From: Candidatus Binatia bacterium
GTDB lineage: Bacteria > Eisenbacteria > RBG-16-71-46 > SZUA-252
DNA: 57,239 nt
Reading direction: 5' to 3'
Assembly: GCA_035631035.1 (NCBI GenBank)
Contig: DASQJL010000114.1
Coordinates: 1-57,239 of the forward strand
The position numbers and the translations under genes were made by a program. How positions within the stretch are numbered: position 1 is the stretch's first letter; each line of letters opens with the position of its first letter. The notes beneath the pieces are model-generated. The model made no database searches, was not told the origin of the DNA, and worked only from the letters and a program-made list of their open reading frames with translations. Shown here piece after piece: positions 3,675-28,255 of the stretch.

Positions 3675-3749
3675 CAAATGGATGGAACCGCCTCCTCGCC
3701 GGGGGCGTATTCGGCCCAGAGAGCCCCGTCGCCCTGCTCAGGAGGCCCC

Positions 3750-4201: not shown

Positions 4202-4209
4202 GCCCGGGA

Positions 4210-6081: not shown

Positions 6082-6203
6082 GGGTGCCTCAAAGTCCTTT
6101 GCTGGAGGGTGAAACGGCATCGATCGTTTAACTTCCGCAACTCTACCAAACGGCGCTCCGAAGGTCCTAACGACGATCGTCGGGGGCCGCTTTCGCGCGC
6201 CGG

Positions 6204-6239
6204 TTGTCCCGAATTAAGCGTTGTCCTAGTTTTTAGGAC
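6204..6239 (+). promoter_or_regulatory. Candidate promoter and operator of the AbiE-like pair
   Basis: TTGTCC (6204-6209) and TAGTTT (6227-6232) are spaced by 17 bases like -35 and -10 boxes. Across the -10 lies a perfect inverted repeat, GTCCTA-5 bases-TAGGAC (6223-6239). Another GTCCTA occurs at 6164-6169 and TTGTCC recurs at 6221. AbiEi antitoxins are known to repress their own operon by binding inverted repeats at the promoter, which fits this position 17 bases before the antitoxin start. Promoter assignment is by eye. Confidence 0.5.
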
Positions 6240-6256
6240 GGGCCAGAATACAGGCC

Positions 6257-7306
6257 ATGAGTGGGACGGATCTGACCCCGCAGCTGGAGCGCCTGGCCGA
6301 ACTTCCCTTCGTCGAGAAACCCCGCGAGGTTCGGTGTGCCGGGCGGGGCGGGCGACCCTTGCCCGATGCATGTATCGAGCTCACCGTGGGGGGGAGGAAG
6401 CGGGTCCTCGCGGTCGAGTTCAGGCGGTCCGATCCGATCAGCCGGATCTCAATCGATCACTGGATCGCGCGAATCGGAGCATCGCGGCAGGATTGGATCC
6501 TGTTCGCGAACCATGTCGGCCCCCGTCTCGGCAAGGAGCTGCGGGAGCAACGGATCAATTTCGTCGACCGGGAGGGCAACTGCCACCTCTCGATCGATGA
6601 GGGACACGTGGCCTACATCGAAGGACGGAAGCGATCCTCTCCAGCCTGGGAATCTCACGGTATGGGTCGCGCCGGGTACCAGGTGCTGTTTGCCTTGCTG
6701 GCGAATCCCGGACTCACGGCAGGCACGGTACGGGAAATCGCGTCGTCATCCGGTGCGAGCAAAACGGCGGCTTCCTCGGTTCTGAACCGGCTGGAACGCG
6801 ACGGCATCGTCGTAGATCGCAACCTCCTGCATCCCGACACCTTGCTTCAGCGCTGGTTGAGCGGTTACGCCGACCGGGTTCGTCCCCGGCTCCTGTTCGG
6901 ACGATACGAGTCGAAGATCCAGGATCCGAACGAACTGGACCGGTTCCTGGAACGCGAGCTTTCCAGTCAAGGTGAGGATTCGTTCGTGGATGGGTCCAAG
7001 ACGATCCGATGGGCCTGGGGGGGCAGTGCGGCCGAACATCGACTTCTCCATTATTATCGTGGAACGATCACGGTCATCCACTTCGACCCAGCGCCGTCGA
7101 CCGCCGCCAAGCGGTGGGGCCTGGCTCCGGCACGAGCGGGGGCGATCACGTTCCTCGGCATTCCCGGCCCCCTCGCGTTCCAAGGTGCGGAGCCCAATAC
7201 GGTGCATCCGCTCCTGATCTATTCGGAGCTGCTGGCCACGGGCGAGGAGCGCGCCCGCGATGCTGCAGCCCGGATCCGGGAGCGCTATCTTCAGCACCTG
7301 TCATGA
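6257..7306 (+). CDS. Type IV toxin-antitoxin AbiEi-family antitoxin
   Basis: 349 residues. The N-terminal half (about residues 20-130) has an endonuclease-like layout (VLAVEFRRSDP) followed by INFVDREGNCHL, a block typical of long AbiEi-family antitoxins. A winged-helix region follows (GTVREIASSSGASKTAASSVLNRLERDGIV, about 155-190), fit for DNA binding. The C-terminal half is probably the antitoxin domain. The usual PD-(D/E)XK lysine position appears to be Arg here, so nuclease activity is unlikely. The stop codon overlaps the start of the nucleotidyltransferase gene (ATGA at 7303-7306), the normal antitoxin-then-toxin order. Palindromes just upstream suggest autoregulation. Confidence 0.75.
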   Translation: MSGTDLTPQLERLAELPFVEKPREVRCAGRGGRPLPDACIELTVGGRKRVLAVEFRRSDPISRISIDHWIARIGASRQDWILFANHVGPRLGKELREQRINFVDREGNCHLSIDEGHVAYIEGRKRSSPAWESHGMGRAGYQVLFALLANPGLTAGTVREIASSSGASKTAASSVLNRLERDGIVVDRNLLHPDTLLQRWLSGYADRVRPRLLFGRYESKIQDPNELDRFLERELSSQGEDSFVDGSKTIRWAWGGSAAEHRLLHYYRGTITVIHFDPAPSTAAKRWGLAPARAGAITFLGIPGPLAFQGAEPNTVHPLLIYSELLATGEERARDAAARIRERYLQHLS

Positions 7307-9290: not shown

Positions 9291-10376
9291 CTACGGCAGG
9301 AACCGCTCGGGGTGCGCGATCTTCTCCGGAAGGTAGGTGTCCATCACGTAGTTCAGGCCGTGCGCCGCCAGCGCCTGCTGCTCGGCGCGGACGCCCATCG
9401 AGATCAGCTTTTCCATGGCCGCGGCCCACGGCTTGTGGTGGTGGAAGAACGGGTCGTTCTTGATGGCGTCCTTGGCGCGCTTCACGTCCACTTCCTTCAG
9501 CGGATGCGTGGGCAGCTTGTAGTCGACGATGTCCTGCGGTGTGATGCCCAGGAACCGGGCCTGCGGCACGCAGAAGAACTCGTTGATGTGCGCCGCGTTG
9601 CCCGATCCCACCTTGAACGTGCGGTAGATGTTCGTGATCCCGTAGGGGTCGCCGTCCACGAAGACATAGACCGGGATCTTCTTTGCGTCGGCGAGACGGC
9701 GGATAAAGCGCCGGCAGGCGCGGGTGGGCACGCCCCCCATCGAGACCAGGATGCAGTTTGCCTTCTTGGCGTAGCCGTGCTTCACCAGGCGCTGGAACAT
9801 GCCGGCGGTCTCGATGACAAGGATGAACTTGGCCTTGGTCTCGAATTCCAGGTCCTCCACCGAGATCGGAATGGAGTAGGCGCCGCTCCCGAACTTGGTG
9901 CAGTCGATGTGCAGCGCCCGGCCGGTCTCCGGATCCTTGTCCACCACGGTCAGGGCGCCCGATACGTCGCCCCCCTTTTCCTCGGGGACGAAGCCCATCT
10001 GCTCGCGATTCACCTCGAAGAGCGCCTCGACGTCGTCCATCACCGTGTCCGACTCGGTCTGCTCCAGGAAGCGCGCGTCGCCCCAGTTCTTTGACACGTA
10101 GTAGGCCTCCCGCTTGGTCGCGATGTCGTCGGTTTCGACGAGCGACTTGGAGAGCGCCATCATCCGGAGCGTCTGCGCGAAGGACTTCACCGTGTTCACG
10201 GTCAGCGTGCGCTCCTTCTTCTTCCCCCGGATCTCGAAATACCCCTCCTTCTCGAGGTAGCGCACGTTGGCGAGCGAGCGGATGGGGAACTTCAAGACCG
10301 GCTTCTTCTTCTTGAGGATCGACTCCTCGACCGCCTTGGCTTCCTTCTTGATCTTGGGGACGACCTTGTCGCTCAC
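9291..10376 (-). CDS. top6A: DNA topoisomerase VI subunit A (Spo11-like)
   Basis: 361 residues from a GTG whose complement is at 10374-10376; it overlaps the top6B stop (GTGA), so the two are translationally coupled. The 5Y-CAP winged-helix domain carries the catalytic tyrosine motif [10 protein letters not shown], with Tyr93 the probable DNA-attacking residue. The Toprim domain supplies Glu in VIETAGMF and the Asp pair in VFVDGDPYG. Together with subunit B it forms a type IIB topoisomerase that relaxes and decatenates DNA. The enzyme is standard in archaea and plants but sporadic in bacteria. The basic N-terminus (many Lys in the first 30 residues) may aid DNA binding. Confidence 0.93.
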
Positions 10377-12022
10377 TGTCGGCTCCGTTCGAGGGTGTCC
10401 TTCAAGGTGTCGCACACCTTGTCGCGCTCCTTGTCCGAGATCGCGAGGATCTCCTGGAGCGCGATGCCGATGTGCGGGATGTATTTCTCGATGTACGAGC
10501 GCTTCTTCTCGGCGTCCGCCTCGCGCAGCCCGCGGCGAATGTAGATGCCCAGCTTCCGCCCGACGTCCTGCAGCGCGAGCCGGATCTCCTTGGCGATCTC
10601 CGGGTAGGACGCGACCGATTCCTTGCTCTCGGACGTGAACGGCACCCAGACCGACGCGATGTGCACGATGAGGATCATCGGCGCCGCGGGAAGCGCGCCC
10701 TTCGACTGCTGCAGCCCGTACGCCTTCCAGTTCGTCCCGACGACCGCTTTCGTGACCGCGCACGCCGACTGCTGGTAGAGGAGCGGCACGCGGTTGGCGA
10801 AGCGGAGCATCGTGATCAGCTCGTCGGCGGGGAGGCTCTCGGCGCCGTAGGCGAGCGCCGCCTCCACGAGGAAGGGGTTTCCGCGGTAGACGGACGGGGA
10901 GCGCGAGGTCGCCGCGTAGAAGCGGGCGTCGATCTGCTTCTTCAGCCCCTCGAGCAGCAGCTCCTCGCCGATCGGCGAGAGCACGTTCGAGGGCGGCGCC
11001 ATCAGCTTGGTCGCCTGGATCGCGTTGTAGAGCGCCTCGGCCTGGTCGCGCGCCGCCTTGTGCGGCGAATAGCCCGCCGAGAGCCCCGCGGCGCGCGCAA
11101 TCTCGTCGGCCACCGTCGGCCCGACGCGGGAGAACTCTCCGCTCAGGAAGGCTCCCAGGTTCTTCGCCTTGGTCTCGTGGAGCATCTTCAGAAGAATGCC
11201 CAGCTCCACGCCGTGCGGGTGCGGCTTGATCTCCAGCGGCGCCTTCGGCATCTCCTCGGCCACGCGCTCCAGCTCGAGCCGCTCGCCGTTGGGGGCGACG
11301 TACGTGATCCGGGCGTGCGGATTCGCCATCGCCGTCTGCTCCACGTAGCCGTCCACGGAGTGGCGGCCCTTCTTGTAGGTCGCCTCGATCTCCAGCTCGA
11401 CCCGCGTGCCGTGCTGCGGCATCCACTCCACTTCGTGGTCGGCCACCACGACCGGCCGGTTCACGCGCGTGTCGATCTGGATGTCGAACTTGTGCGCCGG
11501 CTTCCCGGCGCCCGGACGCGAGATCACGGTGATCGGCTTTCCGGTCGTGAGCTGGCCGTACATGCCGGCCGCCGAGATGCCGATCCCTTGCTGTCCGCGC
11601 GACTGGCGCAGGCGGTGGAACTTGGACCCGTAGAGGAGCTGGCCGAAGATGCGCGGCACCTGCGCCTTCACGATCCCCGGACCGTTGTCCTGGACGGCGA
11701 TGCGGTAGCGCGTCTCGGAGATCTCCTGGATCTCGATCAGGATGTCGGGAAGGATCCCCGCCTCCTCGCACGCGTCGAGCGCGTTGTCGACGGCTTCCTT
11801 CACGGTGGTGAGGAGCGCCTTCGCGGGGCTGTCGAATCCGAGAAGATGGCGGTTCTTGGTGAAGAACTCGCTGACCGAGATCTCGCGCTGCTTCTCGGCG
11901 AGATCGGCCGCCGTGAGGTGGATGATCTTCTTCACGCCCTTCGGCACCTTGAGCGGCGCCGGTTTCCGGGCGATCGGCGTGGACGTGGCTTTCTTCGTGT
12001 CCTTCTTCAATGCTTGCGCCAT
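10373..12022 (-). CDS. top6B: DNA topoisomerase VI subunit B (GHKL ATPase)
   Basis: 549 residues. The GHKL ATP-binding fold shows the N-box in [14 protein letters not shown], the G1 box VQDNGPGI, and the G2 lid [15 protein letters not shown], all intact. The H2TH and transducer regions follow ([19 protein letters not shown] and onward), and the C-terminus is the expected helical tail. ATP-driven dimerisation of B gates the DNA cleavage done by subunit A. The ATG follows a GGGAGG. This is the first gene of a minus-strand run B-A-pheA, with its promoter in the 320-base divergent gap beyond 12022. Confidence 0.93.
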
Positions 12023-15804: not shown

Positions 15805-18186
15805 ATGCCCATCACCATCGAGGCCGTTCTCTCGATCCTGATCACGGCGGTCAGCTGGCTGGCCGCGCCCGCCCAGGCCGCGCCGGCGCGCGACGCCGCC
15901 GTTCCCGCCGCGTTCATCCGCGCCGCCGGGGACCGCTTCGAGATCGTGCGCGGCGGCGTCGCGCGTCCCGTCTTCTTCCGCGGGGTGAACCTCGGGGCCG
16001 GCGCGCCGGGTCACTTCCCCGGAGAGTTCGCCTTCACCAAGGACGACTACCGGCGCTACATCCGATTCGCGCGCGATCTCCACGCCAACGCGATCCGGCT
16101 CTACGCCGTGCACCCTCCGGCGTTCTATCAGGCCCTGCGCGAGGAGAACGCCGCGCACCCCGACCGGCCCGTCTGGCTCTTCCAGGAGGTCTGGACCGAG
16201 CTGCCCGAGTCGGACGACTTCTGGGATCCCGCGTTCACCGCCGGGTTCGACGCCGACGTGCGCTCCGCCGTGGACGCGGTCCACGGCAACGCGCTGGTCG
16301 CGCCGCGGCCGGGGCACGCCTCGGGGCGCTACGACGCCGACGTCTCACCGTGGCTCGCGGGCTGGCTCCTGGGGCGCGAGTGGGAGCCCTACGCCGTGCG
16401 GGCGACCGAGCGGAGCCATCCCGAGAAGACCTCCTTCCGCGGCGCCTTCTTCGCGGTGGAGGCGGGCACGCCCATGGAGACCTGGCTCGCGCGCGCGTGC
16501 GAGACCTCGGCCTCGTACGAGGCCACGCGCTACGGCGCGGCGCACGCCGTCTCGTTCGTGAACTGGCCGACGCTCGACGTGATGCGCCACCCCACGGAGA
16601 CCGAGCGGGGCGGACGGGAGGCGGAGCACGACGAGGACGCCTATTCCGTCGATCCCGTGCGCATCCGCCCCGTGAAGAACGCGGCGCTCGATCGGACGTT
16701 CCGCGGCTACTTCGCGAACTACCACGTCTATCCCTACTACCCGGACTTCATGAATCTCGACCCGGGCTACGCGGCCACGCGCGACCGCCACGGCGCCTGC
16801 TCCTACGCCGGATACCTCCGGGACCTGAAGGCGCACACGCGCGGCATCCCGCTGATGATCGGGGAGTACGGGGTGCCGACGAGCCGCGGCATCGCGCACC
16901 GGCAGCCGCAGGGGATCGACCATGGCGGCGCCTCGGAGCGCGAGCAGGGGGAGCGCGACGTGCGCATGCTCGAGGACATCGCGGACACGGGATGCGCCGG
17001 ATCGCTCCTCTTTGCGCTGTTCGACGAGTGGTTCAAGGTGAACTGGCTGGTCGCAAGGATGGAAGCGCCGCGCGAGCGCGACCCGCTCTGGCACAACCTC
17101 CTCGATCCCGAGGAGAACTACGGCCTGATCGCGTTCGATCCGCCCCCCAGGATCCGCGTGGACGGCGCGACGGCGGACTGGCGGGGCGTCGCTCCGTACG
17201 CGAGCGACCCGGGCGGCGCCTGGCTCAAGGCCCTCTATGCGACGTGCGACCAGGATCGCCTCTACCTTCGCTTCGACGTCGATCCCCATGCCTCGCGTCC
17301 GCCCGCGGCGGTCGGCGCCGCGATCGACGTCCTGGATCCCGGCCGCGGGGACACGCGGCTTCCCGCGCCGCTCCGCGCGGTCTGGTCGCGGGGGGCGGAA
17401 TTCCAGCTCGTGATCGAGCCCGGCGACCCGCGCCGCAATGGCGAGGGCGCGCGGGCGGAGCTGTTCGTCGACCGGAGCACCAACTGGTCGGGCTGGTCGC
17501 GCCTTCTGGATCACGGCCTCTTCGCCGGAAACCGGGCCCCGTTTCGCCCGGTGGCCAACGACGACGGCCGCTACGTCCCGCTCCTGATCGAGACCAATCG
17601 CGAGCGCGTGGCCCGGAATGGAACGGTCTCCCCGGCGCTCCACCTCGACTGGGGGCGCCTCTCCTACGGCGCCGAGCGCACGCCCGCCGGCGCCGCGCCC
17701 GGGGATTCGAGCGTGGCCTACGACCCGCACACCGAGTGGTGCATGGACCGCGCGCGCGGCGTCATCGAGGTCGCGATCCCGTGGGGACTCCTCAACGTCT
17801 CCGACCCCTCGAGCCGCTCGGTCCTGGACGACGACCCGGCCACCCGCCAGACCGAGGTCTCGCCCACGGCCGGGATCGGGTTTCTCGCCTGGGGCACCTC
17901 CGCCCGTGGATTCGAGGCCGATTCCCTGGGTCCCTCGCGGACGGGCGTCCGCGCCGCCAACCGCATGGAATGCCAGTACCTGGGACCCCCGGGCACCACC
18001 CAGACCGCCGCCGGCGAGGAGGTCCGGGTCGCGACGCCCCCCCGCGTATCTCTACTTTGGAACGGCTGGGAGCAGCCGATAACGCGGGAAAGGGCCAAGG
18101 AATCGTCGGCCCTCGTGCGTCAAGCCTTCGAGGGAATGGAGTCCCGTGAGTCGGAAGCCAACCGGAATCAGGACGCGCTCCGCTAG
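15805..18186 (+). CDS. Secreted glycoside hydrolase (clan GH-A-like barrel) with C-terminal carbohydrate-binding-like domain
   Basis: 793 residues; the ATG follows AAGGAGG and opens a signal peptide (ILITAVSWLAAPAQA). Residues about 50-410 look like a TIM barrel. NAIRLYAVHPP is an early strand, GREWEP holds Glu192 or Glu194 as acid/base candidate, NYHVYPYYPD is a substrate-loop pattern, and MIGEYGVP holds Glu354 as probable nucleophile. From about 450 on, a beta-rich region (LYATCDQDRLYLRFDVD) resembles DOMON/CBM9-type domains. It is the first gene of a four-gene exopolysaccharide locus, where such hydrolases commonly trim or release polymer. The last 41 bases overlap the next gene. Confidence 0.72.
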   Translation: MPITIEAVLSILITAVSWLAAPAQAAPARDAAVPAAFIRAAGDRFEIVRGGVARPVFFRGVNLGAGAPGHFPGEFAFTKDDYRRYIRFARDLHANAIRLYAVHPPAFYQALREENAAHPDRPVWLFQEVWTELPESDDFWDPAFTAGFDADVRSAVDAVHGNALVAPRPGHASGRYDADVSPWLAGWLLGREWEPYAVRATERSHPEKTSFRGAFFAVEAGTPMETWLARACETSASYEATRYGAAHAVSFVNWPTLDVMRHPTETERGGREAEHDEDAYSVDPVRIRPVKNAALDRTFRGYFANYHVYPYYPDFMNLDPGYAATRDRHGACSYAGYLRDLKAHTRGIPLMIGEYGVPTSRGIAHRQPQGIDHGGASEREQGERDVRMLEDIADTGCAGSLLFALFDEWFKVNWLVARMEAPRERDPLWHNLLDPEENYGLIAFDPPPRIRVDGATADWRGVAPYASDPGGAWLKALYATCDQDRLYLRFDVDPHASRPPAAVGAAIDVLDPGRGDTRLPAPLRAVWSRGAEFQLVIEPGDPRRNGEGARAELFVDRSTNWSGWSRLLDHGLFAGNRAPFRPVANDDGRYVPLLIETNRERVARNGTVSPALHLDWGRLSYGAERTPAGAAPGDSSVAYDPHTEWCMDRARGVIEVAIPWGLLNVSDPSSRSVLDDDPATRQTEVSPTAGIGFLAWGTSARGFEADSLGPSRTGVRAANRMECQYLGPPGTTQTAAGEEVRVATPPRVSLLWNGWEQPITRERAKESSALVRQAFEGMESRESEANRNQDALR

Positions 18187-19840
18187 ACCGCGCATGGCCG
18201 CGGCGACGGCGGCATTCCTGGCCGCGTCCGCGCTCGCCGCTCTGTTCGCCTCGCCGTCCGTTCCGGCCGCGCGCGCCGATCCCGACCCCGATGCACTCTC
18301 CGCCGCCAAGACGCTGGAGCGCCGCGCGGCGGAGGATTCGTCCGATGCCGAGTCGGCGCTCGCCGAGGCCCGCCGCCTGGCCGACGCGAAGAAGTTCAAT
18401 GAGGCCGCGACCGTGCTGCGCGGCCGGCTCGCGGCCGATCCCCACGACGCCGACGCGCGATCGCTGCTCGCGCGCGTGCTCGCGTGGGGCCGCCATTACG
18501 ACGAATCGATCGCCGAGTATCGGACGCTGCTCGCGCAGCGCCCGGACAATGCGTTCGACCGCGCCGGCTACGCGCGGGTGCTGGCCTGGTCGGGGCGCTC
18601 CGAGGCTTCGCTCCGCGAGTTCCGCCGCGCCGTTCGCGCCGACTCCACCGATCTCGAAAGCCGCGTGGGCTACGCGCGCGCTCTCTCCTGGGCCGGCGAC
18701 CTTCCCGGCGCTTCCACGGAATACCGCGGCATCCTGAGCTCGAATCCGGCGTACGGCGACGCGTGGCTCGGCTATGCGACGGTCGCCCGCTGGCGGGGGG
18801 CCCCGGCTTCGTCGGACCGCTTCCTCGAGCGCGCGGCCCACGGCAGCGCCGACACCGAAGCGATGGACCAGGAGCGCGAGGCCGTGCGGGACGCGCTCGG
18901 CCCCTCGATCGGCGCCGGCGTCACCACGGCGCACGAGCGCCAGTACGTGGCCGCCGCGCCCGATTTCACGATCGAGAGCACGGGCCCCTTCGCGCAGGCG
19001 CGCGCGACCCTCGCGCACGCGGCGACGGTCACGGCGCGCGTGTCGCGCCTGGCGCAGTTCGAGCGCCGCCTGGGTCCCCCCGTCGCGGGGACGACGCTCA
19101 ACTACGACGTGGACATGACCGTGCTGCGCGCCGACGCCGCGCTGACCCGGGCCTATCCGTTCCTGCTGAGCGCCGGCGTCGAGAGCCGCGCGATCGAAGC
19201 GGGAAGCCCCAACGTGATCTACCCGCTGCGCGGCGACGACCGCTTCTTCGGCTGGAACGCGCGCGCCTGGGGATTCGCGGGGCGCTGGACGCCCAGCGTT
19301 TCGATCCGCCGCGACTACGTGCCGATCAAGGACGACGCCGGACTGCCGGAGATCCAGGCGGGGCGGCAGACCGTGGCGGCAGGCGACCTGGCTTATCAGG
19401 GGAACGCGCGCGCCACCCTGAGCGCGGGCGCCGAGCACGGCTCCTATTCGGACGGGAACGACCGGAATACCCTGCACGCCGGCGTTGCCTATCGGCTGCG
19501 CCCGGCCCGTCCGGGCCTGACCGCCGACTACGGCATCTCGTTCACCGATTTCGACACGTCGTCGGCCTCCTACTTCACGCCGCTCAAGAGCACGCGCCAC
19601 GCCGCGGGCCTGGCGCTCACGGGATACTCCGAGAAGGCGTCGCTCGACTGGGGGGCGCGCTACCAGTTCTCGGCGGTCCTCTCGTCCAACTTCGAGAACA
19701 TCTACACGAGCACCTGGTCGGGCTGGGTGAACCTGGTCGCGGGCGGGTCGGTCCCGCTCGGCCTCGAGGGCTCCTACTCGAGGGACAACAACGCCTACGA
19801 GACCTGGTTTGTCGGGGTCTCGGGAGCCGTCCGATGGTGA
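18146..19840 (+). CDS. TPR protein with C-terminal YaiO-family outer-membrane beta-barrel
   Basis: 564 residues from a GTG at 18146 that overlaps the preceding gene. A signal or anchor segment (residues 17-45) leads to about four tetratricopeptide-like repeats ([21 protein letters not shown] and similar, about 65-240). From about 255 to the C-terminal aromatic residue (SGAVRW) it consists of amphipathic beta strands typical of YaiO-type barrels. The TPR-plus-barrel layout parallels the BcsC/AlgK-AlgE export arrangement, so it probably guides polysaccharide through the periplasm and outer membrane. Its neighbours are a glycoside hydrolase and a GT2 synthase. Confidence 0.78.
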   Translation: MSRKPTGIRTRSARPRMAAATAAFLAASALAALFASPSVPAARADPDPDALSAAKTLERRAAEDSSDAESALAEARRLADAKKFNEAATVLRGRLAADPHDADARSLLARVLAWGRHYDESIAEYRTLLAQRPDNAFDRAGYARVLAWSGRSEASLREFRRAVRADSTDLESRVGYARALSWAGDLPGASTEYRGILSSNPAYGDAWLGYATVARWRGAPASSDRFLERAAHGSADTEAMDQEREAVRDALGPSIGAGVTTAHERQYVAAAPDFTIESTGPFAQARATLAHAATVTARVSRLAQFERRLGPPVAGTTLNYDVDMTVLRADAALTRAYPFLLSAGVESRAIEAGSPNVIYPLRGDDRFFGWNARAWGFAGRWTPSVSIRRDYVPIKDDAGLPEIQAGRQTVAAGDLAYQGNARATLSAGAEHGSYSDGNDRNTLHAGVAYRLRPARPGLTADYGISFTDFDTSSASYFTPLKSTRHAAGLALTGYSEKASLDWGARYQFSAVLSSNFENIYTSTWSGWVNLVAGGSVPLGLEGSYSRDNNAYETWFVGVSGAVRW

Positions 19841-19859
19841 GGGCGGCGAGGAGGATCGC

Positions 19860-20933
19860 ATGATCGACTACCAGTCGCTGGTGATCACGCTGGGGCTCCT
19901 GCTCGGAATCCTGGCGCTCACCACGATGGCGGCGGTCGTGAACAAGATCCACTCGACCCGGGAGGAGGATTCCCGGAAGCGCTTCCTGGACCGCCTGCGC
20001 CAGCAGTTCCTCCTCCTGGCTTCGGACGGGGACCGGCCGGCCTCGTATCGGGAGATCGCCAACGGGCTCACCGGCCGCTGGTCGCAGCTCGCCGCCGAGG
20101 AGGTCAGCCAGCTCGAGCTCTCGCTCCGCCTCGACGTGATCCGCTCCCTCGAGGAGCAGGGCGTGATCGCCCATTACCTGCGCGAGACGAAGAGCCCCCT
20201 CAAGTGGTCGCGCGCCCATGCGCTCCGCCTCCTGGGCGAGCTCAAGGTGCCGGCGTCGGTGCCCGCGCTCCTGGCCGCGCTCGAGGACAAGGACCCCGAC
20301 GTGCGCAACGTCGCCGCGCGCGCCCTCGGCAGGATGAAGCTCCAGGCCGCCGAGGAGGCGCTGGTCGGGCTCTTGGGCAAGCACGAGCAGTCGGTCTCGG
20401 CGCGCATCGCCGCGATCTGCATCGAGATGGGCGCCCGCACCGCGCCGCTCCTGATCCGCGCGCTCCGCGACGGAACGCCGAAGGCGCGCTTCTGGGCCGC
20501 CCGCATCCTGGGCGAGATCCGGGAAGGCCGCGCGGCGCGCTCCCTGGGCGACGCCCTCCTCGATCCCGAGCCGGACGTCCGCTCGGCCGCGGCATGGGCG
20601 CTGGGCGCAGTGGCCGACCGGTCCACGGCCGGGATGGTCGAGGCGGCGCTCCGCGATCCGGTCTGGTTCGTTCGCGCGCACGCCGCCGAGGCGCTGGGCA
20701 AGATCGGCGACTCCACGATGGCCGGGGCGCTGGGCCGGATGCTCGAGGACCGCTCCTGGTGGGTGCGCAAGAACGCGCTGGACGCCCTGGTGCTGCTGGG
20801 CGAGGCGGCCAAGCCGGCGCTTCACCTGGCCCTGCAATCGAACGACCGGTTCGCGCGCGACTGCGCCGCGGAGGGCCTGGCCACGCTGGGCGTGCCCGCG
20901 GTCCCGCCCCAGCGGGCCGCGACGGGAGGCTGA
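19860..20933 (+). CDS. Membrane-anchored HEAT-repeat protein
   Basis: 357 residues from the ATG at 19860, preceded by GCGAGGAGG. One N-terminal transmembrane helix (SLVITLGLLLGILALTTMAAVV) is followed by a linker and at least five HEAT repeats of about 30 residues (for example LLGELKVPASVPALLAALED and ALGKIGDSTMAGALGRMLED). Such repeats form a curved scaffold for protein contacts. No catalytic motif is seen. Its place between the outer-membrane barrel gene and the glycosyltransferase gene (1 base gap) suggests it assembles or regulates the synthase complex at the inner membrane. That role is inferred. Confidence 0.82.
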   Translation: MIDYQSLVITLGLLLGILALTTMAAVVNKIHSTREEDSRKRFLDRLRQQFLLLASDGDRPASYREIANGLTGRWSQLAAEEVSQLELSLRLDVIRSLEEQGVIAHYLRETKSPLKWSRAHALRLLGELKVPASVPALLAALEDKDPDVRNVAARALGRMKLQAAEEALVGLLGKHEQSVSARIAAICIEMGARTAPLLIRALRDGTPKARFWAARILGEIREGRAARSLGDALLDPEPDVRSAAAWALGAVADRSTAGMVEAALRDPVWFVRAHAAEALGKIGDSTMAGALGRMLEDRSWWVRKNALDALVLLGEAAKPALHLALQSNDRFARDCAAEGLATLGVPAVPPQRAATGG

Positions 20934-20934
20934 C

Positions 20935-22386
20935 ATGCACGCGATCGACGCTCCGACCTGGCTCTTCCCGACGCTCAACGTCGTGAGCATCGTCGTGCTC
21001 GTCTACTTCACGGCGCTCCAGCTCGTGCTCTTCACGCTGCTCATCGTCTCGTTCTTCGACATGCGCCGGCGGCTGGCCCAGAACTTCTACGCCGACTACG
21101 AGGCGGTGGCCAAGTCGCACTTCACCTTCCCGATCAGCGTGCTCGTCCCCGCCTTCAACGAGGAGACCACGGTGGTCGAAGCGGTGCGGTCCGTGCTCTC
21201 GCTCGACTATCCCCAGCACGAGGTGATCGTCATCAACGACGGCTCCTCCGATGGAACGCTGGCGCGGCTGACCCGCGAATTCGGACTCGTGCGCCGCGAG
21301 ACGATCGTGCGCCGGAGCATCCCGACCGACACGGCCCTCCGGGGCATCTACCGCTCGCCGACGATCCCGAACCTGGTCGTGGTGGACTTGGAGCACGCGG
21401 GTAAGAGCGCTGCGCTGAACGCGGGCATCAACGTCTCGCGCTATCCCCTCTTCTGCACCATCGACGCCGACTCCGTATTCCAGGAGAACGCGCTGCTCCG
21501 GGTGGTGCGTCCGTTCCTGGAGGATCCCGATCGCGTGATCGCGGTGGGCGGCCAGGTCCGCGTCGCCAACGGCTGCAAAGTGGAGCGCGGCCGCGTCGTG
21601 GACCCGCACCTGCCGCAGAACATCCTGGCCGCGTTCCAGGTGGTGGAATACCTGCGCGCCTTCGTCGCGAGCCGCCTCGGGCTCTCGGCCATGAACAACC
21701 TGCTCATCCTCTCGGGCGTGTTCAGCCTGTTCCGGAAGGACGTGGTCGTGGAGGTGGGGGGCTACCGCTCCGACGTCGTGACCGAGGACATGGAGCTGGT
21801 CCTGCGGCTCCACCACGCGATGCGCGAGCAGGGGAGGCCCTATTCGGTGGTGTTCCTGCCCGATCCGATCTGCTGGACCGAGGTGCCGCAGGGGGTCCGC
21901 ACGCTGGCCCGGCAGCGGGGGCGCTGGCACCGGGGGCTGCTCCACTCGCTCTGGCTCCATCGCTCGATCTTCTGGGAGAAGAAGTCGGGGTCCCTCCGCT
22001 GGCTCGGCATGCCCTACTACGTCCTGTTCGAGCTGCTCGGGCCGGTCGTGGAGGTGATCGGCTACATCGTGCTCCCGATCGCCTACTTCATGGGCTTTCT
22101 CTCCCCCCTCTATTTCTGGGCGTTCCTCTTCCTGTCGGTGACGTCCGGGGCCTTCCTGTCGATCTCGGCGGTCTTCCTGGAGGAGCTGTCGTTCGGGCTC
22201 TACCGCTCCTGGGGCGACTTCGCCCTGATGATCGCGATCGGCGTGATCGAGAATTTCACCTACCGCATCCTCACCCTCTTCTTCCGCCTGGGCGCCATGG
22301 TTGATATCCTCTTGGGACGTGGCGGCTGGGGGAAGCAGGAGCGCGCCGGCTTCGGGCGCGCGGAGGCCGCTTCCGTCAAACCCTGA
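20935..22386 (+). CDS. Processive family 2 glycosyltransferase (exopolysaccharide synthase)
   Basis: 483 residues. N-terminal transmembrane helices (about 13-42) precede the GT2 domain, with Asp102 in NDGSSDG, the DAD-type motif at 177-179 (TIDADS), TED at 283-285 and QRGRW at 327-331. That D,D,D,QxxRW set marks processive synthases such as BcsA and PgaC. Four or so C-terminal helices (about 350-450) would form the export channel. No PilZ domain is present, so direct c-di-GMP control is not apparent. With the upstream hydrolase, TPR-barrel and HEAT genes it makes a compact synthase-dependent secretion system. The sugar is unknown. Confidence 0.88.
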   Translation: MHAIDAPTWLFPTLNVVSIVVLVYFTALQLVLFTLLIVSFFDMRRRLAQNFYADYEAVAKSHFTFPISVLVPAFNEETTVVEAVRSVLSLDYPQHEVIVINDGSSDGTLARLTREFGLVRRETIVRRSIPTDTALRGIYRSPTIPNLVVVDLEHAGKSAALNAGINVSRYPLFCTIDADSVFQENALLRVVRPFLEDPDRVIAVGGQVRVANGCKVERGRVVDPHLPQNILAAFQVVEYLRAFVASRLGLSAMNNLLILSGVFSLFRKDVVVEVGGYRSDVVTEDMELVLRLHHAMREQGRPYSVVFLPDPICWTEVPQGVRTLARQRGRWHRGLLHSLWLHRSIFWEKKSGSLRWLGMPYYVLFELLGPVVEVIGYIVLPIAYFMGFLSPLYFWAFLFLSVTSGAFLSISAVFLEELSFGLYRSWGDFALMIAIGVIENFTYRILTLFFRLGAMVDILLGRGGWGKQERAGFGRAEAASVKP

Positions 22387-22426: not shown

Positions 22427-25390
22427 TTGCGCGCCGTCTTGGGGATCGCGCTGGCCTGCCTGATGATGTCGGCGGGCCGGGCATCCGCCGCTCCACCGCT
22501 CTATCCTTCGAATCCCGCGCGCGGACGCTCCACGGCGCTCCAGGCGCCGCGGATCCCCCCGAAGCAGCCCGGGCTGGACGCGCCGTCCCAGGTCCGGACG
22601 ACGGTGGGCAGCAAGTACAAGGTCCTCGTCATCCTCCTCCAGTTCACCGATCACCCCGCGGACACGCTGAACCACACGACGGCCGATTTCGCCGATCTCC
22701 TGTTCTCGAAGGGAACCCGTCCCGGCGGAAGCCTTCGCGACTACTACAACGAGGTGTCGGGGGGCGCCTTCGACGTCGACGGCGTCGTGACCCGGTGGTA
22801 CACGGCCCCGCGGCCCTACACCGACTACGTCGGCACGGATGGCGGGCAGGGCCCTGGCCCCCTCAACGCGCAGGTGATGGCGCTCGACGCCATCCGTCTC
22901 GCGGAGCCCGACGTGGACTTCACCCAGTTCGACAATGACGGGCCCGACGGCATCCCGCACGACGGCGATGACGACGGCGAGGTGGACGGAATCTTCGTCG
23001 TCCATGCGGGTCCGGGCGCCGAGGAGACGGGCATCCCCACCGCGGACATCTGGTCGCACAAGTGGAACGTGCCGGGACCGCGGGGAGGAACGACCGCCGA
23101 CGGCGTGGTCGTCTACGACTACACCACGGAGCCCGAGGAATGGTCCATCAACTCGCCCTGGACCACGAAGGGCGAGCTGATGACGATCGGGGTCTTCTGC
23201 CATGAATTCGGGCACGTGCTCGGACTTCCCGACCTCTACGACACGAGTGGCCTTCCCGGGGCGAACGAGGGGCTGGGCGAGTGGGATCTGATGGCCTCGG
23301 GACTCTTCAATCACCTTCCCGGCAAGACGGTGGGAAGCTGCCCCGCGCATCTCTCGGCGTGGTCCAAGGAAGCTCTCGGCTGGCTCCAGCCCACGTGGGT
23401 GACCCAGGACAGCACCGGCGTGACGATCCCCCCGGTGGAGACCTCGGGACGCGCGTTCCGTCTCTGGACCAACGGGGTCGAGGCCGGAGAGTACTTCCTC
23501 GTGGAGAACCGCCAGCCGATCGGGTTCGACGCCGCGCTCGTGAAGTCCACGATGGAGCGGGATTCGACCGCGGCGCACGGTCTCATGATCTATCACGTCG
23601 ATACCGGGATCATCGGGAACAACACGGCATCCCACAAGCAGGTGGACATCGAGGAAGGAGGCGGCATCGAGGCCGCGTCGGGCTTCACCGGGGTCCAGAA
23701 TCTCGACCTGGCGCGCGGATCGGCGGCCAGCGAGCCGGCGTGCGAGGGGCAGGTGATCGTGGTCGGAAACCGCGGCGATCTCTACGATCCCTGGCCCGGC
23801 GCGGGAGCGCGCGGCGCGTTCGACGCGAACAGCTGCCCCAACAGCGACTCCTACTGCGGCGGAATCTCGCAGGTGGCGATCCGGAACATCGCCGAGGCGG
23901 CAGCGCAGCCCCGGGACGTGACGGCCGACTTCTTCGTCAGCGGGACCTCGGTGCGCCGAGGGGCCGTCACGGTGGACGACTCCCCCTTCCTCGGGAACAC
24001 CAACAATGGAAACGGGCTCGCCGAACCGGGTGAGACCGTCCGGATCCACATCCCTCTGCAGAACCTGGACACCACGCCGACGGGCGTCCTCACGGCGCGG
24101 GTGGCCGTCACCGAGCCCTACGCCGGACTCCTGGCCGACTCGGTCTACTACGGCGCCCTGGGCGGGGCAGCCTCGGACACCGGCTCGGTCATCTTCGCCG
24201 CCATCAACCCGACTCCCGATCCGCGCGGCTGCAACATCACCATCGCGGTCTCCGATCCCGCCGGCCTCGTCCTGGCCGACAGCGTGCAGATCCTGATCGG
24301 CCAGCGCAGCGGCCTCTGCGAGGACTTCGAGAACGGCACCGTGCACCGGTGGGTTTCCGTGCCGCTCGGCTGCGGAGGCGTCAGCGAGTGGCACCGCGAG
24401 GCGGGCGTCAACCACACCCCCGGCGGCTCCTGGGCCTGGAGACTGGGGCCGTTCGGCTTCATCGGCCACTACGCCGCGTCCCAGGACGCGCGCCTCGTGA
24501 GCCAGCCGGTCCGGCTCACGGGCACGAGCGATACCCTCTCCTTCTGGCAGCGCTACGACAGCGAGTTCGCCTTCGACGGGCTGACGGTCGAGATCTCGAC
24601 CAATTCCGGGGCCACCTGGACGCCGCTCAACCCGGTGGGCGGCTACAACACCGGGGACCGCTTCAGCGGCACCCAGACCACGTTCACGCGCGTCGACGTG
24701 CCGCTCACGGGCTATTCGGGAATCGTCCAGTTCGCGTTCCGGTTCCGCTCCGAGCCCCCCAACGAGGGCCTGGGCTGGTGGATCGACGACGTGCTCGTGG
24801 GAGGCACCTCCGCTTGCGCGGCCACGGCGATCGCGATCGCGAGCTTCGACGCGGCGGCCGAGCCTCCCGGCGGCCCCGCCGCGGTCCGCCTGTCGTGGAG
24901 CGTTGCCGACCCGGCCGCAACCTCGGTGGGGATCGACCGGGAGGGCGACGATGGGCCGCGGCGGCGGATCGCCACGGTGCCCGCCTCCGACGGAGGCTAC
25001 CGCGACGCCGACCTCGCCGCCGGCGCCTACCGCTACTGGATCACCGCCTCCCGCGAGGGAGAGCCCGCCGCCGAGGCGGGCCCGATCGCGGTGACGGTCG
25101 GCGAAGCGCCGCGGGTGCTCGCGCTCTCGTCCGTGCGGCCGAACCCCTTCCGCGCCGGCGCTTCGGTGGCCGTCTCCCTGGACCGGAGCGGCCCCTTTAT
25201 GGTACGCGTGTTCACCGCGGACGGACGGCTCGTCCGCACGCTGGCCCGCGGAGCGGGCCGGCCCTCCGATCTTCGGCTCACCTGGGACGGAACGGACGGG
25301 CGGGGACGCCCGGCGGGAGCGGGGATCTACTTCTTCGAGCTGCGCTCCGGAAGCCGGACGCGCGTGCAAAAGGCGGTGCTCCTGCGATGA
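22427..25390 (+). CDS. Secreted M6-family metallopeptidase with FlgD-like C-terminal sorting domain
   Basis: 987 residues from a TTG at 22427, chosen because GGAGGGAG lies at 22411-22418 and the signal peptide (LRAVLGIALACLMMSAGRASA) starts there. The upstream part of the frame overlaps the synthase gene. The zinc site is HEFGH (259-263) with the M6 follow-on GEWDLMASG. Residues about 650-800 are jelly-roll-like (TDTLSFWQRYDSEFAFDG), then comes a fibronectin-III-like segment. The end matches FlgD-Ig or type-A sorting tails: PNPFRAGASV, GTDGRGRPAGAGIYFFEL. Such tails target proteins to the surface in FCB-group bacteria. No secretion-system genes are nearby. Confidence 0.88.
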   Translation: MRAVLGIALACLMMSAGRASAAPPLYPSNPARGRSTALQAPRIPPKQPGLDAPSQVRTTVGSKYKVLVILLQFTDHPADTLNHTTADFADLLFSKGTRPGGSLRDYYNEVSGGAFDVDGVVTRWYTAPRPYTDYVGTDGGQGPGPLNAQVMALDAIRLAEPDVDFTQFDNDGPDGIPHDGDDDGEVDGIFVVHAGPGAEETGIPTADIWSHKWNVPGPRGGTTADGVVVYDYTTEPEEWSINSPWTTKGELMTIGVFCHEFGHVLGLPDLYDTSGLPGANEGLGEWDLMASGLFNHLPGKTVGSCPAHLSAWSKEALGWLQPTWVTQDSTGVTIPPVETSGRAFRLWTNGVEAGEYFLVENRQPIGFDAALVKSTMERDSTAAHGLMIYHVDTGIIGNNTASHKQVDIEEGGGIEAASGFTGVQNLDLARGSAASEPACEGQVIVVGNRGDLYDPWPGAGARGAFDANSCPNSDSYCGGISQVAIRNIAEAAAQPRDVTADFFVSGTSVRRGAVTVDDSPFLGNTNNGNGLAEPGETVRIHIPLQNLDTTPTGVLTARVAVTEPYAGLLADSVYYGALGGAASDTGSVIFAAINPTPDPRGCNITIAVSDPAGLVLADSVQILIGQRSGLCEDFENGTVHRWVSVPLGCGGVSEWHREAGVNHTPGGSWAWRLGPFGFIGHYAASQDARLVSQPVRLTGTSDTLSFWQRYDSEFAFDGLTVEISTNSGATWTPLNPVGGYNTGDRFSGTQTTFTRVDVPLTGYSGIVQFAFRFRSEPPNEGLGWWIDDVLVGGTSACAATAIAIASFDAAAEPPGGPAAVRLSWSVADPAATSVGIDREGDDGPRRRIATVPASDGGYRDADLAAGAYRYWITASREGEPAAEAGPIAVTVGEAPRVLALSSVRPNPFRAGASVAVSLDRSGPFMVRVFTADGRLVRTLARGAGRPSDLRLTWDGTDGRGRPAGAGIYFFELRSGSRTRVQKAVLLR

Positions 25391-25896
25391 GCGGCTCCAC
25401 CACGACCCGGATCGACGGCCCCCTGGTCACCCTCGAGGTGCCGGGGCCCGAGCATCTCCCGGCCATCTGGAAGGTCTACCTGGACGCCCCCGACTACTTC
25501 GAGGCGCTGACCGGCTCCTCCGATTTCGACCCGACCGACGTGGAGATGATGTACGAGGAGGCGATCGCCGACGAGAGCCGCTTCTACTTCGCGGTCCGGC
25601 GCACCGACACGAAGAGCCTGATCGGCACGATCGAGATCGAGTCGGGCTCCGACGAGCACCCGGCCGCGCTCCGGGGCCTCGTGATCGCCCAGGGAGAGCG
25701 GGGCCGGGGCTACGGCCGCGCCGCGCTGGAGATGGCGGAGCAGTTCCTGGGAGACGAGCTGGGCGTTCCTTCGATCGCGGCGGAGGTGCCGGAGGGGTAC
25801 GACGACGGCGAGCGCTTCCTCGAGGCGATGGGCTACCGCCAGCGGCGGCTCAGGTCCGGCGACGTCCGTTGGGTGAAGCGCCTGTCGGAGGAATAG
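25387..25896 (+). CDS. GNAT-family N-acetyltransferase
   Basis: 169 residues, start overlapping the peptidase stop (ATGA). The acetyl-CoA-binding motif A is GERGRGYGRAALEMAEQFL, preceded by the beta strand LRGLVIAQGE. The N-terminal sequence HLPAIWKVYLDAPDYFEALTG suits a RimJ/RimL-like subfamily. The acceptor substrate is unknown. The last 47 bases overlap the 3' end of the convergent histidine kinase gene, so the last 15 codons are read on both strands. Confidence 0.8.
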   Translation: MSGSTTTRIDGPLVTLEVPGPEHLPAIWKVYLDAPDYFEALTGSSDFDPTDVEMMYEEAIADESRFYFAVRRTDTKSLIGTIEIESGSDEHPAALRGLVIAQGERGRGYGRAALEMAEQFLGDELGVPSIAAEVPEGYDDGERFLEAMGYRQRRLRSGDVRWVKRLSEE

Positions 25897-28255
25897 CCGG
25901 GGCTTCGGCCGCCCCGTTCGGGCCCTGCTTCGTCTCGATCGCGCGGTTGGTGCGCGCGATCAGGTCCTCCACGTCGAACGGCTTCGCCACCACGAAATCG
26001 ACGCCGTGCCCCACCACCATCTCTTGGCTGATCGTGGCCCCCCATCCGGTCACCAGCCCCAGGACGACCGAGGGGCTCCCTTCCTGGCGCACGGTCCGCG
26101 CCAGCTCCCACCCGCTCACGTCCGCCATGCCCAGGTCGGTCAGTACCACGTCGAAGGCCCCTTCCCGGAAGCGCTCGATCCCTTCGAGGCCCGAGGAGGC
26201 GGCGGTCACGACGTGCCCGGCTGCCGCCAGCGCCTCTTCCAGGACGTGGAGCAGCTCGAGCTCGTCGTCCACGACCAGCACCCGCGCGGATCTCCGGCTG
26301 GGGTCGGCCTGCCGCGGGGACGCCGGCCGATCGAGCCGATCGGTCACCGGGAAGCGCATGCGCACCACGGTGCCGCGGCCCACCCCGGTCTCCACCTCGA
26401 TCGTCCCCTGGTGGCGCGACACGATGCCGTAGACCATCGAGAGCCCCAGGCCCGTTCCGGAGAGGCCCTTCGTCGTGAAGAAGGGCTCGAACATGCGGCT
26501 CCGCACGTCCTCGTCCATGCCGATGCCGTCGTCCGCGACCTCGATCACGGCCTGTCCCCCCTCGGCGCGGCAGCGCACGTCGATGCGCCCTCCGCGCGGA
26601 AGGGCGTCCACGGCGTTGAAGATCAGGTTCGTCATCGCCTCCCGGATCTCGGCGCGCGAGCCCAGGATCGAGGGGGCGTCGGCTGCCTCGATCCGGACCT
26701 CCACCTTGACGCCTCGCCGCTCGGCGTCGTTCTTCCACTTGCCGCGCGTGATCTCGACCACTTCCTCGGCGATCTCCGCCAGCTCCAGCGACTCGTGCGC
26801 GCGATCCTCGCGCACGCGGCTGAACTGCTGGATGCGGCGCACCGCCTCGCCGCCGTCCATGGCGGCCTGCCGGATCACGTTGAGCCCGGAGACGAGCGCC
26901 GGATCGCCGGTTCGAGACAGGAGGAGCTGCGTCCGGCCGAGGATGATGCCGAGGTTGTTGTTGAAGTCGTGCGCCACGCCGGCCGCCAGCTCGCCCAGGG
27001 CGCGCAGCTTCTCGCCCCGCACCAGCCGGTCTTGAAGGTCCCGGAGCGCGGAGACGTCGGAGACCAGGACCATCGCCGCCGGACGATTCTGGAAGACGAG
27101 CGGAGCCGTCTGCACCTCGACCGGAATCCGCCGGCCGACCGGCTGGACGATCTCGGTCGTCCGCTGCGTGGCCGCGGCGTTCGTGCCTTCGAGGGCTTCG
27201 CGCAGCGGCTCCTGCGCCTCGCCGTCGAAGAGGACGAGCGGGTCGAACCCCGGATGGAGCAGCTCCGACTCGAGCCGGTCCGCCATCTGGGCGATGGCGC
27301 GGTTCGCGAAGACCGCCTTCCCCCTCTGCACGATGAGGAGCCCTTGCGGGCTCGACTCGACCAGCACGCGGTACTTGGCCTCGGACTCCGCGAGCGCGTG
27401 GGTCCGCGCCTCGACGGCGACCTCCAGCGACTGGTTCAGGCGCGCAAGATTCTCGCGGCTCGCGAGCACCTCCGCCTGCTGGCGCTGCACCTCGTCCGAC
27501 ATCCGGTCGAAGTGCCAGGCCAGGGTCTCCAGCTCGTCGCCCGTCTGGAGGTTCACGCGCTGGGAGTAGTCCCCCTTCGCCACCGCGCGCGTCGCCGAGA
27601 CGAGGCGGTCGATCGGTCGGGTGATGCTCCGGGCGGCGGCGCGCGCCGCGAAGAGGCAAAGGATGGCCGCGAGGATGCCCGCCACCACGAGGTGCTGCCC
27701 GAGCGCGGCGATCTCCTGATCCATGCTCTCGAGCGAGACCCCGACGCGCACCGTGCCCCACTTGACCCGGTAGCCGTCCACGTAGACGGGAAGCAGGATC
27801 TCCAGCACGCGTGGGCGGCCCGGGGCCGCGGGCGGGATGAACTTCCACTGCTCCTCCCGCACGGCGTGCGCCGCGTAGTCGTCGGCATCGCGCGGCGGCT
27901 GCCCGAACGAGTTCCGCACGCGGCTGTCGGCGGCGATCTGCCCCTCCTTGTCGTAGATCACGACGTAGGCGATCTCGCCCCCCGCCTGCGACCGGCGAGC
28001 GGCCTGGTTCAGGGCGATGTAGTTGTAGGAGAGGAGTGAGGGGGTGGAGAGCCACGCGATGCTCCGGGCCACGGCGAATCCGCGCTTCCGGGTCTCTCGG
28101 AGGAGCGAGTCGCTCTCGCTTCGCACGAAGAAGGTGACCGCCGCCGCCACCAGGCCGACCACGATGATGCCGAACGTGAGGAAGATGCGCGCGTGAAGCC
28201 CGGCGCGCGGCCGGCGCGGGGCCCCCGCGGGCTCCGTCTCGTCGATCGGGGTCAT
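25850..28255 (-). CDS. Hybrid sensor histidine kinase with PAS and receiver domains
   Basis: 801 residues from the ATG with complement at 28253-28255. Helix 1 (about 25-45) and helix 2 (about 190-212) bracket a periplasmic sensor region, followed by HAMP (SITRPIDRLVSATRAVAKGDYSQ... region), a coiled coil, PAS (about 290-400), and HisKA with His429 in GVAHDFNNNLG. The HATPase follows (N-box NLIFNAVDALP, G1 VADDGIGM, G2 GTGLGLSMVYG). The C-terminal receiver has phospho-acceptor Asp707 in VVLTDLG. The start overlaps the stop of the solute-binding-protein gene (ATGA), so the two are coupled and the binding protein may supply the ligand signal. No separate DNA-binding regulator is adjacent. Confidence 0.9.
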   Translation of the reverse strand: MTPIDETEPAGAPRRPRAGLHARIFLTFGIIVVGLVAAAVTFFVRSESDSLLRETRKRGFAVARSIAWLSTPSLLSYNYIALNQAARRSQAGGEIAYVVIYDKEGQIAADSRVRNSFGQPPRDADDYAAHAVREEQWKFIPPAAPGRPRVLEILLPVYVDGYRVKWGTVRVGVSLESMDQEIAALGQHLVVAGILAAILCLFAARAAARSITRPIDRLVSATRAVAKGDYSQRVNLQTGDELETLAWHFDRMSDEVQRQQAEVLASRENLARLNQSLEVAVEARTHALAESEAKYRVLVESSPQGLLIVQRGKAVFANRAIAQMADRLESELLHPGFDPLVLFDGEAQEPLREALEGTNAAATQRTTEIVQPVGRRIPVEVQTAPLVFQNRPAAMVLVSDVSALRDLQDRLVRGEKLRALGELAAGVAHDFNNNLGIILGRTQLLLSRTGDPALVSGLNVIRQAAMDGGEAVRRIQQFSRVREDRAHESLELAEIAEEVVEITRGKWKNDAERRGVKVEVRIEAADAPSILGSRAEIREAMTNLIFNAVDALPRGGRIDVRCRAEGGQAVIEVADDGIGMDEDVRSRMFEPFFTTKGLSGTGLGLSMVYGIVSRHQGTIEVETGVGRGTVVRMRFPVTDRLDRPASPRQADPSRRSARVLVVDDELELLHVLEEALAAAGHVVTAASSGLEGIERFREGAFDVVLTDLGMADVSGWELARTVRQEGSPSVVLGLVTGWGATISQEMVVGHGVDFVVAKPFDVEDLIARTNRAIETKQGPNGAAEAPAIPPTGASPNGRRRT

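What the first reader, a model, noticed from the sequence alone, without database searches (positions are those of the whole stretch)
15805..22386. Compact four-gene synthase-dependent exopolysaccharide system with a HEAT-repeat component
Secreted hydrolase, TPR plus YaiO-type barrel, membrane HEAT-repeat protein and processive GT2 are consecutive with overlaps or short gaps. The set covers synthesis, periplasmic passage, outer-membrane export and polymer trimming. It differs from the Bcs, Alg, Pel and Pga systems in having a HEAT-repeat scaffold, no PilZ domain and a YaiO-type barrel. It may represent an undescribed or little-studied secretion type.
Basis: partly seen in the sequence, partly recalled or inferred. 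Interest (0 to 1): 0.65.

Follow-up and report, generated by a model that had tools for sequence, protein, structure and literature searches.

The report
HEAT-partnered exopolysaccharide synthase operon
A bacterium of the candidate phylum Eisenbacteria carries a compact four-gene machine that looks built to make, trim and export a sugar polymer, and its core (the polymer synthase plus a membrane-anchored HEAT-repeat partner) turns out to be a widespread, apparently unnamed pair shared by many bacteria and some archaea.

Summary
The four genes are real and consecutive: a secreted hydrolase, a TPR plus outer-membrane barrel, a membrane HEAT protein and a processive GT2. A profile of the GT2 finds a discrete family: true members score at least 346 bits, and the next full-length matches score 184 bits or less. 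It occurs in 39 of 385 sampled genomes and on plasmids from Bacteroidota, Bacillota, Deinococcota, Pseudomonadota and haloarchaea. A HEAT gene lies directly upstream of the GT2 in 48 of 49 loci. Of 19 control loci only one has it, and that GT2 falls inside the clade. The hydrolase matches no Pfam family; its 19 host genomes are all HEAT-GT2 genomes, even where the genes are unlinked.

Corrections: the barrel here is not YaiO-type. AlphaFold gives TPRs plus 16 strands, and its best solved matches are BcsC, PelB and PgaA; YaiO barrels occur in other branches. The HEAT domain faces the cytoplasm, not the periplasm. One claimed gene overlap is a start-codon artefact.

Most likely this is a synthase-dependent exopolysaccharide system without PilZ or BcsB, in which a cytoplasmic HEAT partner (near a REC gene in about half of relatives) replaces the usual co-subunits. 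The polymer is unknown. I found no paper naming it.

The parts
15805..18186 (+). HYD: signal-peptide-bearing, predicted (beta/alpha)8 clan GH-A-like glycosidase (793 aa) with a C-terminal beta-rich domain; no Pfam family
   Evidence: ORF; no family match; alignment of 14 homologues with invariant E192, E354, D407-E408-W409; AF2 pLDDT 75; Foldseek best matches GH157, GH2, GH5; SD AAGGAGG just upstream
16378..16380 (+). codon of invariant E192 (candidate acid/base, GxE motif)
   Evidence: invariant in 14 homologues; role inferred from clan GH-A
16864..16866 (+). codon of invariant E354 (candidate nucleophile, ExG motif)
   Evidence: invariant in 14 homologues; role inferred from clan GH-A
18146..19840 (+). 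OMP: signal peptide, TPR array, C-terminal 16-strand outer-membrane barrel (start GTG 18146 or ATG 18194)
   Evidence: Pfam TPR; AF2 pLDDT 89.5, TPR-type helix pairs then 16 strands; Foldseek top 5 = BcsC, BcsC, PelB, PgaA, BcsC; start-site context
18905..19837 (+). barrel part of OMP (strands 1-16 of the model)
   Evidence: residue 1 of the model = codon 18278
19860..20933 (+). HEAT: one N-terminal TM helix then HEAT repeats, predicted N-out/C-in (cytoplasmic repeats)
   Evidence: PF13646 124 bits; repeats at 20190-20816; start codon and SD; topology; adjacency to GT2 in 48/49 loci
19884..19940 (+). predicted transmembrane helix of the HEAT protein (ITLGLLLGILALTTMAAVV)
   Evidence: mean Kyte-Doolittle 2.35; +3 net charge in the 25 residues after it, -4 in the 15 before
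20935..22386 (+). GT2: membrane-embedded processive family-2 glycosyltransferase (483 aa), the polymer synthase
   Evidence: PF13641/PF00535; below PgaC, CelA and XrtG cut-offs; catalytic residues conserved across 49 family members; 1 bp gap and SD GGGAGG
21463..21927 (+). GT2 catalytic motifs D177xD179, E284-D285, Q327xxR330W331 (D102 of NDGS at 21238-21240)
   Evidence: 48-49 of 49 members conserve each catalytic Asp, Gln, Arg and Trp, E284 in 47

Best explanation
A synthase-dependent exopolysaccharide operon of a distinct type. The GT2 polymerises an NDP-sugar on the cytoplasmic side and threads the chain through its own membrane channel. The HEAT protein, held by one TM helix with its repeats in the cytoplasm beside the GT2 domain, is an obligatory partner or regulator: it takes the place of PilZ/BcsB, PgaD or MshEN and in about half of relatives probably listens to a REC protein encoded close by. 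The chain then passes a periplasmic TPR platform and the 16-strand barrel. HYD, a retaining clan GH-A-like glycosidase, cuts or trims the same polymer. Shown here by computation: gene set, deep co-conservation, barrel type, HEAT topology, conserved catalytic residues. Inferred: polymer product, HEAT-GT2 contact, REC control, HYD substrate.
For: HYD-OMP-HEAT-GT2 order kept in family f1 and in f6 (40% HEAT, 61-63% GT2 identity). GT2 family discrete: members at or above 346 bits, next full-length matches at or below 184 bits. HEAT directly upstream in 48/49 loci, with hits elsewhere in the same stretches only in L065 and L066. Controls: of 19 loci only L088 has HEAT, and it falls inside the 50-row clade with SH-aLRT 99. 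REC on the same strand upstream in 25/49. HYD linked in 16 loci including Paenibacillus, Deinococcus and Planococcus. HYD genomes are a subset of HEAT-GT2 genomes: 19/19, and outside the phylum 7/7 where 26/338 would be the background, about 7e-9 by hypergeometric reckoning, with HYD on another contig in three. OMP: AF2 pLDDT 89.5, 16 strands, five best matches all polysaccharide exporters. HEAT topology. Processive GT2 residues conserved. Named loci carry sugar-nucleotide genes: a nucleotide sugar dehydrogenase plus epimerases in Legionella, GlmS plus nucleotidyltransferase in Halosolutus.
Against: No polymer, expression data or protein contact is shown. REC is absent beside this locus and beside most HYD-type loci. 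The HYD model has only moderate confidence (pLDDT 75). Adjacency also fits simple co-regulation without a HEAT-GT2 complex. No nucleotide-sugar gene sits in the window cluster to name the substrate.
Confidence: 0.72

Rival explanations
1. A divergent PNAG (Pga/Ica-type) system: the GT2 makes poly-GlcNAc and the HEAT protein and hydrolase are lineage extras.
For: PgaC_IcaA is the best NCBIfam model for the GT2 (146 bits) and also for a distant relative (146 bits); the barrel resembles PgaA; the haloarchaeal locus has GlmS next to it.
Against: 146 bits is far below the 422-bit PgaC cut-off. E. coli PgaC scores 118 bits against the family model and falls outside the clade. HYD matches no Pfam model, hence not the PgaB domains.
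Confidence: 0.12
2. The HEAT protein is a passive assembly scaffold or an unrelated operon passenger; the synthase works alone as HasA-type enzymes do.
For: Single-subunit processive GT2s exist (hyaluronan synthase appears among the PDB matches). No contact is shown. HEAT sequences diverge faster than GT2 (40% vs 61-63% in f6).
Against: 48/49 adjacency across bacteria and archaea at synthase identities down to about 30-40%, and restriction to one GT2 clade, is not what a passenger shows.
Confidence: 0.12
3. The GT2 is not an exopolysaccharide synthase but glycosylates a lipid or surface protein, and HYD removes that glycan.
For: The family also occurs in cells without an outer membrane, where no exporter is needed. 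The substrate is unknown.
Against: DxD/ED/QxxRW residues of processive synthases are conserved, and a BcsC/PelB/PgaA-type exporter is encoded in the same gene cluster.
Confidence: 0.04

Closest known systems
NfrBA-YbcH exopolysaccharide system of E. coli (PMC8669469)
   Same: Minimal operon: processive GT2 with DxD/TED/QxxRW plus TPR outer-membrane barrel; dedicated cytoplasmic control element; rare monoderm versions without the barrel reported.
   Different: Control there is an MshEN c-di-GMP domain fused to the GT2; here a separate HEAT protein. NfrB gave no hit to the family model. No HYD in nfrBA-ybcH.
Pga/Hms PNAG system
   Same: GT2 next to a TPR-16-strand porin and a periplasmic polymer-cutting enzyme; PgaC is the nearest curated synthase model.
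   Different: Below PgaC cut-off; no PgaB match; HEAT instead of PgaD; HYD is a different glycosidase.
Bcs cellulose secretion system
   Same: Overall logic (synthase, TPR-barrel BcsC, glucanase BcsZ). The barrel's best structural match is BcsC.
   Different: No PilZ in the synthase, no BcsB anywhere in this genome, CelA model 50 of 699 bits, hydrolase unlike BcsZ by profile.
YaiO-family outer-membrane proteins (PF19413/TIGR04390)
   Same: YaiO proteins accompany the same HEAT-GT2 pair in Emticicia, Mesorhizobium, Legionella, Erythrobacter and Bacteroides.
   Different: The window's barrel does not match YaiO models or profile; it is a 16-strand barrel.
Clan GH-A glycosidases (GH157, GH2, GH5)
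   Same: HYD is predicted as a TIM barrel of this clan with two invariant Glu.
   Different: No sequence-level match to any Pfam or PDB family; TM-scores low (0.3-0.47).

Membership tests
Bcs (cellulose) system | synthase with PilZ domain | tested here: not met
   Pfam scan of the GT2 shows no PilZ; the genome's only PilZ is on another contig
Bcs (cellulose) system | BcsB subunit | tested here: not met
   PF03170 absent from the own genome, controls ring
Bcs (cellulose) system | TPR plus 16-strand BcsC-type barrel | tested here: met
Pga (PNAG) system | synthase over the PgaC/IcaA cut-off | tested here: not met
   146 vs 422 bits
Pga (PNAG) system | PgaB-type deacetylase/hydrolase | tested here: not met
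   hydrolase homologues match no such Pfam model
Nfr system | GT2 with C-terminal MshEN domain | tested here: not met
   no MshEN in the GT2; NfrB not hit by the family HMM
YaiO outer-membrane family | match to PF19413 or TIGR04390 | tested here: not met
   hhalign probability 18%
Synthase-dependent exopolysaccharide secretion (general kind) | inner-membrane processive GT2 encoded with a TPR-linked outer-membrane barrel | tested here: met
Synthase-dependent exopolysaccharide secretion (general kind) | a secreted polysaccharide that depends on these genes | not testable with these tools
   needs an experiment
HEAT-GT2 pair (family defined here) | GT2 over the gap in score with a HEAT gene directly upstream | tested here: met
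Clan GH-A glycosidase | (beta/alpha)8 fold with two catalytic Glu | tested here: inconclusive
   Foldseek E 6e-11 to GH157 but TM 0.33-0.47 and pLDDT 75; E192 and E354 invariant
Alg and Pel systems | their synthase and accessory families | not tested
   only indirect: no Alg or Pel model among NCBIfam matches up to E 0.01 for the GT2

The most novel reading that the evidence does not exclude
HEAT-GT2 is a separate class of polysaccharide synthase found in bacteria and archaea, in which a cytoplasmic HEAT partner, switched by a phosphorylated receiver protein rather than by c-di-GMP, gates the synthase, and onto which different lineages bolt different exporters (BcsC-like or YaiO barrels, or none) and different polymer-cutting or modifying enzymes (the HYD glycosidase family, or sulfatase/LTA-synthase-type domains).
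Probability: 0.4. Interest if true: 0.8.

Novelty: new variant of a known kind. Interest (0 to 1): 0.62.

Why it matters
Synthase-dependent exopolysaccharides build biofilms, and the textbook systems are mostly switched by c-di-GMP. A synthase class present in about 8% of the sampled genomes outside this phylum, including on haloarchaeal and Gram-positive plasmids, with a constant HEAT partner and frequent receiver-domain neighbour, implies another control principle and probably unknown polymers. The linked hydrolase family, which lies outside Pfam yet occurs only in HEAT-GT2 genomes in the sample, is a ready probe for the polymer's chemistry.

Tried and rejected
YaiO identity of the window barrel: rejected. 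HYD by PDB or Pfam sequence profile: nothing. Arabinose-containing polysaccharide (aps) operon of Sinorhizobium meliloti as a described member: the original papers are not held; a scan of pSymB 470-500 kb gave no GT2, HEAT or YaiO hit, but I could not confirm that the stretch holds the aps genes, so this stays open. A simple terminator after GT2 or sigma-70 promoters: none above chance, so operon limits are undecided. A WWVRxNA motif as general HEAT signature: in only 17 of 48, mostly HYD-type loci. Regex counts of GT2 motifs were too strict (27 of 49) and were replaced by alignment columns. Synteny inside family f1 was not used as evidence by itself, because unrelated neighbours (HAD, pilus ATPases, M6) are conserved there too. 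Papers holding both 'HEAT repeat' and 'exopolysaccharide': nine found by keyword. I looked up the passages in four of them and none describes this system; the other five were judged by title and abstract only and not opened.
Full report
What is there. The HEAT start is better placed at ATG 19860, which has a strong Shine-Dalgarno and lines up with homologues. The OMP-HEAT overlap is then an artefact of taking the first start codon, with a 19-bp gap instead. HEAT and GT2 are 1 bp apart. The M6 peptidase that follows probably starts at TTG 22427, 40 bp after the GT2 stop; it is conserved there only in the window's own family. The window lies in a 3.35 Mb genome; close relatives in the named collection are Candidatus Eisenbacteria MAGs plus one filed as Latescibacterota.

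Is it conserved as a unit? Within the family (f1) the four genes are always together where the contig allows it to be seen, but unrelated neighbours are too, so the test lies outside it. Family f6 (GT2 61-63%, HEAT 40%, barrel about 24% identity) keeps hydrolase-barrel-HEAT-GT2 in order. f8 keeps the hydrolase upstream of HEAT-GT2, and Lujinxingiaceae keeps HEAT-GT2 with the hydrolase divergently next door. A profile of 12 GT2s (A1) over 385 genomes gives 39 positive genomes, 26 of them outside the phylum. A looser search in 241 genomes shows a gap: members at or above 417 bits in that set (346 bits in the larger set), the next full-length match at 184 bits, then 123 or less. The one row in between (256 bits) matches only a C-terminal piece (profile 295-458), in a genome whose family copy ends at its contig end.

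The HEAT partner. I fetched the surroundings of the positives and of named plasmid hits. With a HEAT model iterated from the set, 48 of 49 loci have HEAT immediately upstream of the GT2 (43 of 49 already with the seed model from this phylum), and other HEAT hits in the same stretches occur in only two loci. The exception, L066, has HEAT hits 8-9 kb upstream. Of 19 control loci (13 with the next-best GT2s, two HEAT-less plasmid GT2s, and the E. coli PgaC, NfrB, YaiP and BcsA loci), only L088 has HEAT, and the tree puts it inside the clade: one branch with SH-aLRT 99 holds 50 rows, 49 with HEAT. The tree is a quick one with some long branches, L088 among them, so its inner order is not used. The 48 HEAT proteins share one N-terminal TM helix (45 of 48), with mean net charge +3.6 just after it and +0.1 before it. 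By the positive-inside rule the repeats are cytoplasmic. A REC domain is encoded on the same strand within 4.5 kb upstream in 25 of 49 loci, often directly before HEAT.

The hydrolase. No Pfam, NCBIfam, PHROGs or PDB sequence match exists for it, and only weak scattered single-member Pfam hits for its homologues. Homologues sit next to or near HEAT-GT2 in 16 loci, including Paenibacillus (two copies), Deinococcus (annotated only as a TPR protein) and Planococcus. They rarely coincide with REC (1 of 16 against 24 of 33; Fisher p 1e-5, or 4e-4 after collapsing near relatives; phylogeny is not otherwise corrected). A search of the same 385 genomes for the hydrolase finds 19, and every one is a HEAT-GT2 genome. 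Outside the phylum that is 7 of 7 where 26 of 338 genomes have the pair, about 7e-9 by my own hypergeometric reckoning, with two of the seven from one family. In three of these the hydrolase is on another contig, so linkage alone does not explain it; one of the three (G284) is a partial match. E192, E354 and D407-E408-W409 are invariant in 14 homologues. The AlphaFold model (pLDDT 75) matches GH157, GH2 and GH5 enzymes. I read it as a retaining clan GH-A-like glycosidase of unknown substrate.

The barrel. The window protein fails both YaiO models and aligns poorly to a YaiO profile built from 19 family loci (hhalign probability 18%). AlphaFold gives pLDDT 89.5, TPR-type helix pairs and exactly 16 strands. 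The five best solved structures are BcsC (three entries), PelB and PgaA. In other lineages the same HEAT-GT2 pair is next to genuine YaiO proteins: Emticicia, Mesorhizobium, Legionella, Bacteroides and Erythrobacter. The haloarchaeal and Planococcus loci have no annotated barrel. The exporter is thus the exchangeable part and HEAT-GT2 the constant core.

Mechanism. The GT2 keeps the residues of processive synthases (D102, D177, D179, E284-D285, Q327, R330, W331; 47-49 of 49) and does not pass the PgaC, CelA or XrtG cut-offs. The most likely reading: GT2 polymerises and translocates, HEAT is its cytoplasm-facing partner or switch, the TPR-barrel exports, and the hydrolase trims or frees chains. 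The first two steps rest on conserved residues, deep co-conservation and topology, the third on structure prediction, the fourth on co-occurrence and fold. Polymer identity is open. Relatives carry a nucleotide sugar dehydrogenase and epimerases (Legionella), GlmS plus a nucleotidyltransferase (Halosolutus) or sulfatase/LTA-synthase-type domains, so the polymer probably differs between lineages.

Known or new. It works like Bcs, Pga and Nfr but fails defining features of each that were tested. The nearest published analogue is NfrBA, a GT2 plus TPR porin controlled by an MshEN domain (PMC8669469). No paper found in the open-access library describes a HEAT-GT2 synthase; subscription papers and preprints are not covered. 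NCBI annotation already labels such neighbours as 'HEAT repeat domain-containing protein' and 'glycosyltransferase', so the genes are known but the pair appears unnamed.

Noticed in passing
window 9291-12022, - strand: Topoisomerase VI subunits A (TOP6A/Spo11 Toprim, 199 bits) and B (transducer, 194 bits) next to each other, an uncommon enzyme in bacteria.
   Followed up: partly
window 22427-25390, + strand: M6-type metallopeptidase with a C-terminal FlgD/sorting-like domain, 40 bp after the GT2, conserved there in the window's own family only.
   Followed up: partly
window 25850-29032, - strand: Hybrid sensor kinase (sCache, HAMP, PAS, HisKA, HATPase, REC) convergent with the operon; REC-bearing opposite-strand frames lie nearby in the family relatives. 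It might supply a receiver signal to the HEAT protein, which is untested.
   Followed up: partly
L062 7237-10674 (-), L063 7315-10719 (-): GT2s of this family run on into a long C-terminal extension in one frame; in L062 it is a sulfatase-type domain (PF00884). In Emticicia (L069) an LTA synthase-like gene follows the YaiO gene. Suggests a phospho-substituted polymer.
   Followed up: no
L077 (Planococcus maritimus plasmid) 1-7260: HEAT-GT2 and a divergent hydrolase sit with polyphosphate polymerase-domain, DUF4956 and CotH genes.
   Followed up: no
L074 and L079 (haloarchaeal plasmids): Archaeal versions REC-HEAT-GT2 without any outer-membrane part; in L079 a sugar nucleotidyltransferase and GlmS follow directly.
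   Followed up: partly
HEAT proteins of HYD-type loci, e.g. window HEAT last repeat: A W-W-V-R-x-N-A motif in the last repeat, in 17 of 48 HEAT proteins and mostly those with the hydrolase; absent from other HEAT proteins of the own genome that were looked at.
   Followed up: partly
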